Assembly (NCBI RefSeq): GCF_030767025.1
Contig: NZ_JASITE010000001.1
Coordinates: forward strand, 372,001 to 436,000
Direction of reading: 5' to 3'
Origin: Nocardia sp. CC227C
GTDB taxonomy: Bacteria > Actinomycetota > Actinomycetes > Mycobacteriales > Mycobacteriaceae
DNA: 64,000 nucleotides
Under the pieces are notes generated by a model that saw only the letters and a list, made by a program, of their open reading frames with translations, made no database searches and was not told where the DNA came from. Shown piece after piece: positions 9,839 through 42,766 of the stretch. Both the position numbers and the translations under genes were made by a program. How positions within the stretch are numbered: position 1 is the first letter of the stretch; each line of letters begins with the position of its first letter.

Positions 9839-11305
9839 ATGAATATGAGTCGGGTGGGTGAGGTGTTCGCGGTCGTGGAGGAATTGACGACCGCGACCAC
9901 CGCCCTGCTCGACGAGGACCTCACCAGCTACACCGATACCGACTTCGTGGAATTGATGCGACGCGTGGAAGCCGTCCGCGCCCGGTTGGGCGCGGTGTCG
10001 CATCGCCTGGTCATCGAGACCAGCGACCGGCATCTGCCCGAACGTGCCGGGTGCAAGAGCCTCGCGAAGTATTTGAGCGAGACCCTGCGGGTCTCGATGG
10101 CCGAGGCCGGAGCACGACGACGCGCGGCAGAGAAACTCGGCGTGTTTCATTTCGTGCACGGAGAAGACCGGGAACCGGAATTACCGCACACCGCCGCCCA
10201 GCAAGCGGCCGGGCTGCTGTCGGTAGAACACGCCCGCCGCATCATGACGGTCATGGACCGCATCCCCGCCGCCGTACCGACCGAATTACGGGTAGAGGCC
10301 GAACAGTTGTTGGCCCGGCACGCGCGCGAGTTGACCCCGGAAGCGATCGTGACGGTCGGGGAATCGATCCTGGCTCACCTCGACCCCGACGGCACCCTGA
10401 CCGACGACCGCGACCGCGCACGCGTCCGGGGGATCACGGTGGGGCGTCAACGCATCGACGGCATGACCGAAATCAACGGACTGCTCACCCCACACCTGCG
10501 GGCGCTGCTGGACGCGGTGCTGGCCAAAGGCGCCCGGCCGGGCATGTGTAACCCCGAGGACTCCGACAGTCCCTCGCTGGCCACCCGCGCCATCGACCCG
10601 AAACACCTCGAGGCCGCCGCCGGACGCGACATCCGCACCATCGCGCAACGCAATCACGATGCTGTGGCGGCGTTCCTGACTGCCACCGGGGGCGCGAAAA
10701 CCCTCGGCAGTCACCGGGGGATGCCGGTGTCGGTCGTGCTCACCATGCGTGTCGAGGACCTCGAACGCGGTACCGGGCACGCGGTCACCGGTTCGGGCAC
10801 GACCCTGTCGATCCCGGCCGCGCTGCGGATGGCCGAGGGCCGCTACCCGTGGCTGTTGCTCTTCGGCCGTGACGGAGTCCCCCTGTACTTGGGGCGCGGG
10901 CAGCGGTTGGCGTCGCGGTGGCAGCGGTTGGCGTGTGTGGCCCGTGACCGTGGCTGTACCTTCCCCGGCTGTGATGCGCCCGCGACGATGTGCGCGGTGC
11001 ACCATCTTATCCCGTGGGCACAGCAGGGCGGCACCGATATCGACAACCTGACCTTGGTGTGCGATCGCCATCATGCCCACGTCGCGGAGGACGCCGGGGA
11101 TCCGACCGGGTGGGCCACCGAACGCCTCGACGCGCACACTGGGTATCCGGGTCGTACCGGGTGGCGGCCTCCGGCCCATCACGACCCGGCACGGGGTCGG
11201 CGGGTCAACCACCGCCACCACGGCGACGAACTCCTCGGCCCCGCCATCCACCGCCTGCGCGTCAGGCAGGATGCTGGGCTACCTCCGCCGCCCCTGCGGC
11301 AATAA
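9839..11305 (+). CDS. DUF222 / HNH endonuclease (13E12 repeat family)
   Basis: 488 residues. The DUF222 domain covers about residues 20-330. An HNH nuclease follows at about 370-415: CTFPGCDAPATMCAVHHLIPW, then GGTDIDNLTLVCDRHH. It has the two metal-binding CxxC-like pairs and the HH and N of the catalytic fold. These multi-copy genes occur in mycolata and are often near phage or repeat sequences; their role is not settled. The last 29 codons (from HHGDELLG to PPPLRQ) are present again twice downstream in tandem, each copy with its own stop or equivalent end. The ATG at 9845 is a possible alternative start. Confidence 0.9.
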   Translation: MNMSRVGEVFAVVEELTTATTALLDEDLTSYTDTDFVELMRRVEAVRARLGAVSHRLVIETSDRHLPERAGCKSLAKYLSETLRVSMAEAGARRRAAEKLGVFHFVHGEDREPELPHTAAQQAAGLLSVEHARRIMTVMDRIPAAVPTELRVEAEQLLARHARELTPEAIVTVGESILAHLDPDGTLTDDRDRARVRGITVGRQRIDGMTEINGLLTPHLRALLDAVLAKGARPGMCNPEDSDSPSLATRAIDPKHLEAAAGRDIRTIAQRNHDAVAAFLTATGGAKTLGSHRGMPVSVVLTMRVEDLERGTGHAVTGSGTTLSIPAALRMAEGRYPWLLLFGRDGVPLYLGRGQRLASRWQRLACVARDRGCTFPGCDAPATMCAVHHLIPWAQQGGTDIDNLTLVCDRHHAHVAEDAGDPTGWATERLDAHTGYPGRTGWRPPAHHDPARGRRVNHRHHGDELLGPAIHRLRVRQDAGLPPPPLRQ

Positions 11306-11505
11306 GTCCGGTCACCACGGCAACGAACTCCTCGGCGCTTCCGTCCTCCGGCTGCGCGTCGAACACGGTGCCGGACTACCACCGTCATCCCTGCGGCAAT
11401 AAGCCCGTCACCACGGCGACGCACTGTTCGGCTCCAGTGTCCACAGGCTGTGGGGCGAACACGACGCCGGGCTAGCACGCCACCCCTGCGGTGATCAGTC
11501 CCAGG
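11216..11505 (+). repeat. tandem copies (about 96 bp) of the DUF222 gene 3' end
   Basis: Three direct copies begin at 11216, 11313 and 11409 (97- and 96-bp spacing). Copy 1 is the true 3' end of the DUF222 gene. Copy 2 still reads HHGNELLG..LRLRVEHGAGLP..LRQ and ends with CTGCGGCAATAAG exactly as copy 1 does. Copy 3 (HHGDALFG..HRLWGEHDAGLA) is more diverged. The retained reading frame and stop codon in copy 2 suggest slippage or recombination between related DUF222 genes. Confidence 0.85.
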
Positions 11506-29563: not shown

Positions 29564-30493
29564 ATGACCGCGAATCCCACGCACGGTAATCCCACGCCCG
29601 CGAGTCCTGTGCTCGCGAGTTCTGCGTCCCCGAGTCCCGCGTCCCCGGGTTCTGCGTCCCCGGGTTCTGCGCCCGCGAGTCCTGCGTCCCCGAGTTCTGT
29701 GTCCCCGAGTCCCGCGCCCGGGACTCCCGACCCCGGGAATTCAACACAGCCGGTCGCCTTCGTGACCGGTGCCGCCCGTGGGATCGGCGCGGCCATCGCC
29801 GCGCGGCTGGCCGCCGACGGGGCCGTCGTGGCGGTCGCCGACCTCGACGAGTCCGCCTGCGCCGCGACCGTGGACGCCATCGCCGCCGCTGGCGGCAAGG
29901 CCGTGGCCGTGGCCTGCGACGTGACCGCCGAGGACCAGGTGGACGCCGCCGTGGACCGGGTGGCGGCCGACCTCGGATCACTGGACATCCTGGTCAACAA
30001 TGCCGGGGTGCTGCGCGACAACCTGCTGTTCAAGATGTCGCTGGCGGATTGGGACACCGTCATGTCGGTCCACCTGCGCGGCGCGTTCCTGTGCAGCCGG
30101 GCGGCCCAGCGGCATATGGTGGCCCAGCGCTCCGGCAAGATCGTCAACACCTCCAGCGTCTCCGCGCTCGGCAATCGCGGGCAGGCCAACTACAGTGCCG
30201 CCAAGATGGGCATCCAGGGCTTCACCCGCACCCTCGCCATGGAACTCGGGCCGTACGGCATCAATGTCAACGCCGTCGCGCCGGGCTTCATCGTCACCGA
30301 GATGACCGCCGCCACCGCCGCGCGCATCGGCGTGAGTTCCGAAGAGCTGCAAGCCGAGACCGCCGCGATCACACCGCTGCGGCGGGTCGGGCGGCCCGCC
30401 GACATCGCCAATGCGGTGGCCTTCCTGGCCTCCGGCGATGCCGCCTTCGTCACCGGCCAGACCATCTACGTCGACGGCGGACGCCGTCTCTAG
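29564..30493 (+). CDS. FabG-like SDR with a repetitive Pro/Ser/Ala N-terminal extension
   Basis: 309 residues; the SDR domain itself starts only at about residue 63. The domain is complete: TGAARGIG, ILVNNAGVLRD, Ser in VNTSSVS, Tyr-Lys in YSAAK, and a C-terminal GQTIYVDGG. That fits 3-ketoacyl/3-hydroxyacyl dehydrogenases. The first 62 residues are a low-complexity run of SP, AS and PG units made by a 15-bp DNA repeat. A start inside the extension cannot be excluded, but ACAGGAG lies correctly before ATG 29564. It likely acts on the 3-hydroxyacyl-CoA made by the MaoC hydratase. Confidence 0.9.
   Translation: MTANPTHGNPTPASPVLASSASPSPASPGSASPGSAPASPASPSSVSPSPAPGTPDPGNSTQPVAFVTGAARGIGAAIAARLAADGAVVAVADLDESACAATVDAIAAAGGKAVAVACDVTAEDQVDAAVDRVAADLGSLDILVNNAGVLRDNLLFKMSLADWDTVMSVHLRGAFLCSRAAQRHMVAQRSGKIVNTSSVSALGNRGQANYSAAKMGIQGFTRTLAMELGPYGINVNAVAPGFIVTEMTAATAARIGVSSEELQAETAAITPLRRVGRPADIANAVAFLASGDAAFVTGQTIYVDGGRRL
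29600..29734 (+). repeat. 15-bp in-frame tandem repeat in the SDR gene
   Basis: Nine units of about GCGAGTYCTGCGTCC / CCGGGTTCTGCGTCC, each coding five residues of the SASPS/GSASP type. Two neighbouring units are almost identical, so copy number is likely to vary between strains. Confidence 0.8.
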
Positions 30494-40416: not shown

Positions 40417-40557
40417 GCGCGGCGGGACGAGCCGAGATTCGAGTGTCCAGAGGCTCAGCCCTCGGTGCGCTTCGAGACGCGGTCACGTCCGCCATCGAAA
40501 GGTGGCCGAGGCGTTCACCCACGCGTACGGGGGCGGCCGTGACCGAGGCCCGCACCC

Positions 40558-40616
40558 GCGAGGGGGAACTGGTGGCGGCAACGGCCGAGAGGAGGCCGCC
40601 ACCGGTTCCCCCTCGC
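40558..40616. terminator. large hairpin between convergent genes
   Basis: 22-bp arms at 40558-40579 and 40595-40616 with 21 of 22 pairs matching and a 15-nt loop. It lies between the DUF3558 lipoprotein (plus) and the exonuclease (minus), so it can end both. No T run follows on either strand. The rest of the 240-bp gap holds no gene. Confidence 0.65.
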
Positions 40617-40657
40617 AATGGTTGCGGGAGTGGGCGGGGGGAGCCGCGAGGCGCATG

Positions 40658-42766
40658 TCACCCGTGGCCGTCGATTGGCTGTTCACCGCGGATCGCCGCG
40701 TCGGCACGGTCGAGCCAGGTCGTCCATGCGCCTGCGCCGAGGCGGGGTTCGCCGTAGCCGTCGGAGGTGCGGACGATGCGGGTGCCTGGTTGCTCCAGCC
40801 AGCGGGCGAGGAGGGCGGCCTCCTCCGGAAGTGCGCCGCGCAGTGGGGGATACGAGTCGTTGTCGAGTACGTCGGCCGGGGATACACGGTCGGGTGCGCG
40901 GAGTGCGTGGTCGGGTGAGGTGAGTGCGTGGCCGGGTGTGCCGGGTGGCGGGGAGGGGGTATGGCCGGGTGCGCCGGGTGGCTGGCAGGGGGTATGGCCG
41001 GGTGCGCCGGGTGGCTGGCAGGGGGTATGGCCGGGTGCGCCGAGTGGCTGGCAGGGGGTATGGCCGGGTGTGCCGAGTGGCTGGCGGGGAGTGTGGTCAG
41101 GTGTGCCGGGTGGCTGGGAGGGGGCGTGGTCTGGTGTGCCGAGTGCGGGACGCGGGGGTGGGGCGGGGGTGTCGAGCGGGAGGGTTGGAGCGAGTGCGGC
41201 AGCATCGGGTGTGGCTGGGGTTGGGGGCGTGCTGCCGGGTAGGCGGGTGGGGATGACGGTTTCGGCGGCGGCGACCAGGTGGTCGACGACGGGCATGGGG
41301 GGTACGCCGCGGGTGGCGGTTCCGGCGGCGGCCAGGCGGGCGTGGCGGATGACCGCGAACTCCCAGCCGCCCGCGCCGTCGGGGTGGGCGGCGATCAGTT
41401 CGGGGATGCGGGCCAGGGCGGCGAGGCGCTGGGTGCGGCGCAGCGCGCGCAGCACGGCGACGAGGCGGTCGCGCAGCCGGGCGGCCGATTCGAAAGTCTC
41501 TGCGCTGGAATAGCTTTCGATGCGAGCGCGGATGGCGTGCAGGGGCTCGTCGCAGCGCCCGGTGAACAGCGCGCGGACCGTCTCCGGAGCGCGGCTGTAC
41601 TCCTCTATATATAGGGGTGCGTTTCGGGCGCTCGCCGGGCAACCGCCGACCACGGCGGGCGGGCACTCGTGCCGACCGTCGCGCGGGATGCGGGCGGTGC
41701 AGGTGCGCAGGCCGGTGTACTCGGCGACCGTCGCCCCCACGTCCGTCGCGTCCGTCCGAGAGGTGAAGGGCCCCAGGCTGTATCGCGTCGGGGTCCGGGA
41801 GACGGCGAAGCGGGGGAACGGCTCCTCGGTGAGCGTGAGCCACCACGCCCGCTGCGGGAACTTCGACCGGCGGTTGTACGGCGGCGCGTGCGCCATGAGC
41901 AGCCGCAGCTCCCGCACCCCGGCCTCGAGCCCGTGCGCGCACACCACGTGGTCGATCCGGGTCGCCAGCCGCACCATCTCCCGCATCCGCGGCCGGGTCT
42001 CCGAACCGGTGAAGTAGCCGCGCACCCGGCGGCGCAGATTCACCGCCGTCCCTATGTAGAGGACTTCATCGGCGGGCCCGCGGAACAGATACACCCCCGG
42101 TGCGGCCGGAAGATCCACCGCCAGCACTCGTTTGGCACGATGCTGCCGCGTGACCTCCGGCAGATAGTCGACGAGTTCGGTGAGGCTGTGCACGCCCAGA
42201 TTCCCCACCCGCCCGATGAGCGCGTGCAGCACGTCCACGGTGGCGCGGGCGTCGTCGAGCGCGCGGTGCGTCGGCGTCGTCTCCGCGCCCAGCAGCTGCG
42301 CCAGCACCGACAGCTTCACCGAGGGGGCCTCGTCGCGACCCAGGATCCGCCGCGCCAGCCGCACCGTGCACAGTACCTGGAACGCGGGCCAGGCCAGCTC
42401 GCAGCGCAGCGCGGCCGCCTTCAGGAAACCGAGGTCGAAACGCGCGTTGTGGGCCACCAGCACCGCGCCCGCGGCGAACTCCAGGAAGCCGGGCAGCACC
42501 GCGTCGATGCGGGGCGCGTCGTAGACCATGGCCGTGGTGATGCCGGTGACCTGCACGATCTGCGGTGGAATCGAACGTCCCGGGTTGACCAGGGTGGCGA
42601 ACTCGCCCAGCACCTCGCCGCCGCGCACCTTCACCGCGCCGATCTCGGTGATGGCGTCGCCCTCCGGGCTCGTTCCGGTGGTCTCCAGGTCCACGACCAC
42701 GAAAGTCGTGGCGTAGAGCGGAGTGTCGAGGTCGTCGAAGGCCAGCTGCTCGGGCACGGCCTGCAA
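40658..42766 (-). CDS. DEDDh exonuclease / GIY-YIG (UvrC-like) fusion protein
   Basis: 702 residues. N-terminal DEDDh exonuclease domain ([46 protein letters not shown]), like DNA polymerase epsilon subunits. It is followed at about residue 225 by a GIY-YIG domain ([26 protein letters not shown]) and a UvrC-like UVR region ([21 protein letters not shown]). It matches Rv2191-type proteins with a likely role in DNA repair. A proline-rich repeat region at about 545-610 is encoded by 33-bp units. The start is TTG 42766 or GTG 42757; neither has a good ribosome site. Confidence 0.9.
40936..41133 (-). repeat. 33-bp in-frame tandem repeat in the exonuclease gene
   Basis: Six units of 33 bp, two consecutive ones (40969-41001 and 41002-41034) identical by eye. 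A seventh, decayed unit is at 41134-41166. Each codes eleven residues of the pattern [11 protein letters not shown]. This is an unusual insert in an enzyme domain linker and likely differs in copy number between strains. Confidence 0.85.

What the first reader, a model, noticed from the sequence alone, without database searches (positions are those of the whole stretch)
40936..41166. 33-bp repeat inside a DNA-repair exonuclease
Six clean and one decayed 33-bp units code for [11 protein letters not shown]-type 11-mers within a DEDDh/GIY-YIG protein. Each of several units carries a Cys. It is a likely variable-number repeat, useful for typing, and adds a flexible Cys-containing linker to a nuclease.
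Basis: seen in the sequence. Interest (0 to 1): 0.5.

Follow-up and report, generated by a model that had tools for sequence, protein, structure and literature searches.

The report
Repeat-grown loop in bacterial repair nuclease
In a Nocardia bacterium, a loop of a DNA-repair enzyme has been lengthened by a tandemly copied 33-letter DNA stretch; some related species grew unrelated repeats at the same spot, which looks like ordinary, tolerated drift of a floppy loop.

Summary
The array is real: 6.6 copies of 33 bp at 40929-41145, in frame in a 702-aa minus-strand gene (40658-42766). The protein belongs to the actinobacterial DEDDh + GIY-YIG + UvrB-binding nucleases (NF005905). The array fills over half of a Pro/Thr/Ala/Gly-rich linker (aa 507-638), which AlphaFold2 leaves mostly disordered, inside the C-terminal domain. 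The finding's coordinates are about 25 bp off; only 3 of 7 units carry Cys.

Comparison changes the picture. Linkers run from 2 to 167 aa over 68 Nocardia orthologues (median 20) and are 1 aa in Saccharopolyspora and Pseudonocardia. The nearest relative, N. otitidiscaviarum (92.8% DNA), has its own 33-bp array with different units; the next, N. uniformis, has 20 aa and none. N. ninae/N. suismassiliense (30 bp), N. shimofusensis (18 bp) and N. tenerifensis (18 bp) have other arrays at the same site: at least four changes on the tree. Linker Cys are not conserved. The ten long linkers measured also show weaker codon bias than the gene core.

Best reading: a dispensable disordered loop where in-frame tandem duplications are tolerated and turn over. 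Strain-level variability (typing use) could not be tested.

The parts
40658..42766 (-). 702-aa DEDDh exonuclease + GIY-YIG + UvrB-binding-motif protein (PRK07883 / NF005905), TTG start
   Evidence: NF005905 909 bits against a cut-off of 508; RNase_T 8e-38
42227..42700 (-). DEDDh 3'-5' exonuclease domain, aa 23-180
   Evidence: D26, E28, D111, H167 and D172 invariant in 30 of 30 aligned orthologues
41861..42115 (-). GIY-YIG endonuclease domain, about aa 218-302
   Evidence: (UvrC N-terminal domain structures); Y226, Y237, G239, R245, R247, E286 and N298 invariant in 30 of 30
41627..41701 (-). UvrC-like Cys region, aa 356-380: three of the four Cys kept, the fourth position is Ala380
41462..41542 (-). 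UVR (UvrB-binding) motif, aa 409-435
   Evidence: PF02151 in 27 of 30 orthologues, best 4.6e-07 (this member 0.014, 15.6 bits, under the cut-off of 21.5)
41267..41398 (-). first half of the small C-terminal domain, three strands and a helix, aa 457-500
   Evidence: block means of pLDDT 95-98
40853..41248 (-). hypervariable Pro/Thr/Ala/Gly-rich linker, aa 507-638 (132 aa)
   Evidence: anchors on both sides; pLDDT below 50 over aa 520-631
40910..41140 (-). 33-bp tandem array: six units plus one decayed unit, in frame
   Evidence: TRF 40929-41145; units listed
40888..40938 (-). short 21-bp tandem repeat (2.4 copies) overlapping the decayed unit
40685..40852 (-). second half of the small C-terminal domain, helix-strand-helix, aa 639-694
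   Evidence: E649, W656 and V665 invariant in 30 of 30

Best explanation
The array is a young, in-frame coding minisatellite in a dispensable disordered surface loop of the actinobacterial DEDDh/GIY-YIG repair nuclease. Ancestrally the loop was probably a turn of about one residue between two halves of the C-terminal domain. In Nocardia it became tolerant of insertion. Tandem duplication (replication slippage or unequal exchange; inferred) repeatedly created arrays of different period and sequence, in multiples of three bases, and these expand, turn over and decay while the catalytic and UvrB-binding parts stay conserved. The repeat probably has no dedicated biochemical role beyond lengthening a flexible tether. 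Shown: the array, its frame, the disorder prediction, length variation and repeated occurrence at one site. Inferred: slippage as the mechanism and near-neutrality as the cause.
For: Linker lengths of 2-167 aa (median 20) in 68 Nocardia rows, a multiple of three in 67 of 67 measured; L033 was set aside because its core is frameshifted upstream of the linker. Outgroups: 1 aa in the Saccharopolyspora, Pseudonocardia, Longimycelium and Kutzneria loci, 15-17 aa in Tsukamurella. Arrays of 33, 30, 18 and 18 bp in four lineages (best TRF scores of the six array rows 146 to 358) need at least 4 changes on a 74-row tree of the core gene. N. brasiliensis IFM 10847 has a 145-aa linker with a 75-bp segment repeated 141 bp away (87% alike), against 32 aa in N. 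brasiliensis NBRC 14402. TRF arrays of score 100 or more: 5 in 5,810 linker bases against 7 in 417,293 other bases of 57 Nocardia loci, window not counted. In a sample of 118 Nocardia genomes the array region has a long match, besides the window's own genome, only in N. otitidiscaviarum (G109, the same sequence as L003); the other matches over the array are short and weak, 25-108 bases, E 5e-5 or worse. Units are more alike within the window (86%) than between the two sister species (62%). Disorder: pLDDT below 50 at 520-631. Differing codon pairs among six units: 46 nonsynonymous, 21 synonymous; changes 19/29/22 over codon positions, so the residues are not tightly held. Four-fold GC3 is 0.65-0.81 in 10 linkers of 60 aa or more against 0.88-0.93 in the cores of the same genes.
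Against: The ten long linkers measured keep a similar make-up (Pro/Ala/Gly/Ser/Thr 53-70%), which could mean selection for an extended tether. Recurrence at one site could be positive selection rather than tolerance. In N. otitidiscaviarum the units are hardly more alike among themselves (66%) than with the window's (62%), so homogenisation is shown for the window only. No strain-level data show that the array is unstable now. The flank control is confounded: arrays lengthen the linkers they sit in, and flank arrays may be non-coding. Third-base G+C is also somewhat lower just after the linker in some genes (window 17 of 22). The tree is a quick one with SH-aLRT support only, array rows were labelled by hand, weaker repeats (scores 30-56 in L011, L024, L079, L086, L090) were counted as none, and the number of changes does not by itself tell gain from loss.
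Confidence: 0.75

Rival explanations
1. The linker is adaptive: long disordered tethers were selected repeatedly in Nocardia, and copy number tunes how the C-terminal domain or UvrB reaches the two nuclease domains, as repeat number tunes TolA in E. coli.
For: Long linkers (60 aa or more) in 11 of 68 Nocardia rows, in several separate clades; similar make-up despite unrelated units; tolA repeat number changes stress tolerance (PMC3477136, abstract read).
Against: Many relatives do without (N. uniformis 20 aa, N. cyriacigeorgica 3 aa, N. vinacea 2 aa); unit residues change freely; codon bias is weaker in the linker.
Confidence: 0.15
2. The tract matters as DNA: a G-rich strand (template strand of the gene) that can form G-quadruplexes or bind a protein, with the peptide as by-product.
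For: Coding-strand G/C skew -0.51 in the window linker, and two canonical G-quadruplex motifs on its + strand.
Against: Only the window and N. otitidiscaviarum show the skew (-0.51, -0.42); six other long linkers (L006, L008, L020, L024, L027, L078) lie between -0.03 and 0.09 (quadruplex motifs were not searched there). Lengths are multiples of three in 67 of 67 rows.
Confidence: 0.05
3. A second gene overlaps the array: one of the long open frames on either strand (for example 40767-41513 + or 40483-41205 -) is the real product.
For: Three of six frames are open across the whole linker, and several ORFs of 100 aa or more overlap it.
Against: No Pfam match at E 0.001 for those two frames. The linker sequence that would encode them is absent or different in relatives, while the nuclease frame continues into a conserved C-terminal half.
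Confidence: 0.03
4. Copy number in the assembly is an artefact of short-read collapse or expansion.
For: The genome is a 52-contig draft, and units 3 and 4 (counting from 0) are identical.
Against: The other units differ from each other, and the sister species' own assembly has an array of the same period at the same place. The existence of the array is safe; the exact count is less so.
Confidence: 0.05

Closest known systems
Cho-like+Exo subfamily of the GIY-YIG superfamily (PRK07883 / NCBIfam NF005905)
   Same: N-terminal DEDD exonuclease, GIY-YIG, UvrC-like Cys region, UvrB-binding motif, no RNase H/HhH end of UvrC detected; described as specific to Actinobacteria in PMC1564403 (passages read)
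   Different: 132-aa repeat-built linker inside the C-terminal domain; fourth Cys of the Cys region missing, as in the other Nocardia rows read
Intragenic tandem repeats such as those of E. coli tolA (PMC3477136, abstract read)
   Same: in-frame coding repeat of variable copy number
   Different: tolA repeats vary among strains of one species and were tested for phenotype; here only between-species variation is shown, and the site bears different repeats in different species
VNTR / MLVA typing loci (mycobacterial MIRU-VNTR; recalled and seen in listings)
   Same: tandem array of minisatellite period
   Different: polymorphism among isolates not shown

Membership tests
NCBIfam NF005905 (PRK07883, DEDD exonuclease domain-containing protein) | whole-protein score above the curated cut-off | tested here: met
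   909 bits against 508
Cho-like+Exo (PMC1564403, Table 1) | N-terminal DEDD/ExoIII exonuclease domain | tested here: met
   PF00929 8e-38, aa 23-180
Cho-like+Exo (PMC1564403, Table 1) | GIY-YIG domain | tested here: met
   PF01541 in 30 of 30 orthologues at E up to 10 (this member 0.0017, below its curated cut-off); profile match to UvrC over aa 213-444, probability 99.8%
Cho-like+Exo (PMC1564403, Table 1) | C4 region with four conserved Cys | tested here: not met
   Region aligned to UvrC and three Cys invariant in 30 of 30, but position 380 is Ala; no Cys there in 67 of 67 Nocardia rows read, one further row (L025) unread. So I file the protein under NF005905 and call Cho-like+Exo its architecture
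Cho-like+Exo (PMC1564403, Table 1) | UvrB-binding (UVR) motif | tested here: met
   PF02151 in 27 of 30 at E up to 10; this member E 0.014 at aa 409-435, below its curated cut-off; the UvrC profile match covers it
Cho-like+Exo (PMC1564403, Table 1) | no UvrC EndoV/RNase H and HhH end | tested here: met
   no such Pfam family among the 13 that matched in 30 members at E up to 10, though HMMER's filters drop most weak matches; no profile match of the C-terminal part to UvrC's C-terminal half
VNTR typing locus | tandem array well above chance | tested here: met
   score 308 against at most 118 in shuffles
VNTR typing locus | copy number differs among isolates of one species | not testable with these tools
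   collections hold about one genome per species; the closest found is 92.8% identical in DNA

The most novel reading that the evidence does not exclude
One loop of a repair nuclease is a repeat-birth hotspot under selection: Nocardia lineages independently grew disordered repeat tethers there, so that linker length became an evolvable dial for coupling the C-terminal domain (and UvrB binding) to the exonuclease and endonuclease.
Probability: 0.12. Interest if true: 0.5.

Novelty: new member of a known kind. Interest (0 to 1): 0.27.

Why it matters
It gives a natural series, 1 to 167 residues with four kinds of tandem unit, of how coding minisatellites arise and turn over in one tolerant loop of an otherwise conserved repair enzyme. 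If the array proves variable among isolates it could serve as a typing marker for the N. otitidiscaviarum group. The nuclease itself seems little studied: 3 papers in the searched library name Rv2191, the presumed M. tuberculosis counterpart (name recalled).

Tried and rejected
Cys-based function of the repeat: rejected, Cys not conserved in related linkers. G-quadruplex as common cause: rejected, G-strand skew in one lineage only. Other copies of the array in the genome: only one second match, overlapping the array's own end (51 first-look candidates, 40 scored). Identity of the C-terminal domain: Foldseek gave no match at E 0.001 or better, VIA-align best Z 4.0, and profile comparison with actinobacterial UvrC after the UVR motif was not significant (E 0.17 and 0.22). 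By eye the order of strands and helices resembles the UvrC segment just after its UVR motif, with the linker where UvrC has a loop and a strand, but no test supports this. The full-model VIA search was filled by the exonuclease domain, as were the 50 rows shown of the full-model Foldseek search.

Literature: three searches for Nocardia with tandem-repeat terms (15 of 33 listed; 12 of 194 listed; 0 papers) and two on intragenic repeats and disorder (0 papers; 6 of 6 listed) showed no paper on this array in the rows listed; only listings were read for these, so this is not a claim that none exists. Searches (3 papers; 1 paper) sought the nuclease. Papers opened: PMC1564403, PMC12170906 and PMC10609372 (passages), PMC3477136 (abstract and outline).

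Rows dropped: 110 linker rows were measured. L105 and L109 had no usable anchor. L033 was left out of the frame and codon counts. Of the 12 uvrC stretches, 9 were used; 3 gave a wrong-frame ORF.

Full report
Observation. The window holds a 33-bp tandem array at 40929-41145, 6.6 copies, 90% matches, no indels. Scrambling the linker 500 times by dinucleotide and 500 times by codon gave best scores of 118 and 108 against 308. The array lies in frame in a minus-strand gene of 702 codons (40658-42766). Units 0 to 5 are recognisable (mean pairwise identity 86%), two of them identical; unit 6 is decayed after about five codons. Cys occurs in units 2, 3 and 4 only.

Host protein. NF005905 scores 909 bits against a cut-off of 508. 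Pfam gives RNase_T and, below their curated cut-offs for this member, GIY-YIG and UVR; over 30 orthologues these two are found in 30 and 27 at E up to 10. Profile comparison with actinobacterial UvrC aligns aa 213-444 with 99.8% probability. Residues that I recall as catalytic in both nuclease families are invariant in 30 of 30. This is the architecture called Cho-like+Exo, specific to Actinobacteria, in PMC1564403 (passages), with the difference that the fourth Cys of the C4 region is absent here.

Where the repeat sits. AlphaFold2 with 30 sequences gives mean pLDDT 81, with aa 520-631 below 50. The disordered stretch separates a three-strand-plus-helix half (457-500) from a helix-strand-helix half (647-694) of a small C-terminal domain; both halves are conserved. 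In the Saccharopolyspora and Pseudonocardia loci the two halves are joined by about one residue at this place.

Comparison. The closest named relative is N. otitidiscaviarum NBRC 14405 (92.8% over 4.1 kb of DNA). It has a 146-aa linker with its own 33-bp array, whose units read like GTPDQTAGHTP rather than [11 protein letters not shown]; window and sister units are 62% alike, window units among themselves 86%, sister units 66%, so the window's array looks recently homogenised and the sister's older or more decayed. N. uniformis, the next branch, has 20 aa and no array. Over 68 Nocardia rows the linker runs 2-167 aa, median 20, with 11 at 60 or more. N. ninae and N. suismassiliense have a 30-bp array, N. 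shimofusensis and N. tenerifensis 18-bp arrays of different sequence. On a 74-row tree of the core gene the array state, labelled by hand, needs at least four changes; the six outgroup rows have no array (linkers of 1 to 17 aa), so gains are the simpler reading. N. brasiliensis IFM 10847 has a 145-aa linker containing a 75-bp segment twice, 141 bp apart, while N. brasiliensis NBRC 14402, a near neighbour on the tree, has 32 aa. A DNA search of a sample of 118 Nocardia genomes (the window's included) with the array region and its flanks found a long match, besides the window's own, in one genome only (G109, query 105-551, 78%); its sequence is the N. otitidiscaviarum one, 100% over 3,441 bases. 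The other matches were mostly to the conserved C-terminal half after the linker; those over the array itself were short and weak.

Controls. TRF arrays of score 100 or more: 5 in 5,810 linker bases and 7 in 417,293 other bases of 57 Nocardia loci; arrays lengthen linkers, so the ratio overstates the effect. In 800 kb of the same genome plus the window, four arrays reach 300, so strong arrays as such are not exceptional in this genome.

Codon use. In the 10 linkers of 60 aa or more that were measured (of 11; L033 left out), G+C at the third base of Pro, Thr, Ala, Gly and Val codons is 0.65-0.81, against 0.88-0.93 in the core of the same genes. The 47 codons after the linker give 161 of 185 in eight genes, though 17 of 22 in the window, and pooled short linkers give 0.84. 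This fits weak selection on the inserted sequence, or its recent birth.

Mechanism. Shown: repeated, in-frame length change at one predicted disordered loop, with different units in sister species. Inferred: slippage or unequal exchange as the source, and tolerance rather than need as the reason. A selected tether is the main rival; similar composition of unrelated linkers speaks for it, free change of residues and many short-linker relatives against it.

Verdict. A real but ordinary kind of feature: a coding minisatellite in a tolerant linker, with good comparative evidence for repeated birth. Strain-typing value remains open.

Noticed in passing
41627-41701 (aa 356-380), and the Nocardia orthologues: The UvrC-like four-Cys region lacks its fourth Cys in 67 of 67 Nocardia rows read (one row unread) and in 2 of 6 outgroup rows (both Tsukamurella); 4 of 6 outgroup rows and 9 actinobacterial UvrCs keep it. 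If UvrC's Cys region binds an iron-sulphur cluster (recalled), this branch may have lost it.
   Followed up: partly
linkers of L003, L006, L008, L020, L024, L027, L078, L092, L093 and the window: All ten long linkers measured show lower third-base G+C at four-fold codons than the core of the same gene.
   Followed up: partly
29601-29729: 15-bp repeat coding an Ala/Ser/Pro-rich N-terminal stretch before what looks like a short-chain dehydrogenase (29564-30493 +); not scanned against families.
   Followed up: no
11212-11491: 97-bp repeat, 2.9 copies, over the 3' end of an ORF (9839-11305 +) that looks like an HNH-nuclease 13E12-type protein (label recalled, not scanned).
   Followed up: no
L147:5739-5985 (window genome, contig 5): Another strong multiple-of-three array, 30 bp x 8.2, inside a 914-codon open frame.
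   Followed up: no
L033 (N. brasiliensis IFM 10847) and L007 (N. crassostreae): The orthologue is frameshifted just before the linker in L033; in L007 the open frame read from the match start ends after 175 codons. Sequencing error or a real break cannot be told apart here.
   Followed up: no
L025:4976-5071 (N. macrotermitis): Twelve perfect copies of an 8-bp unit shortly after the end of the gene.
   Followed up: no
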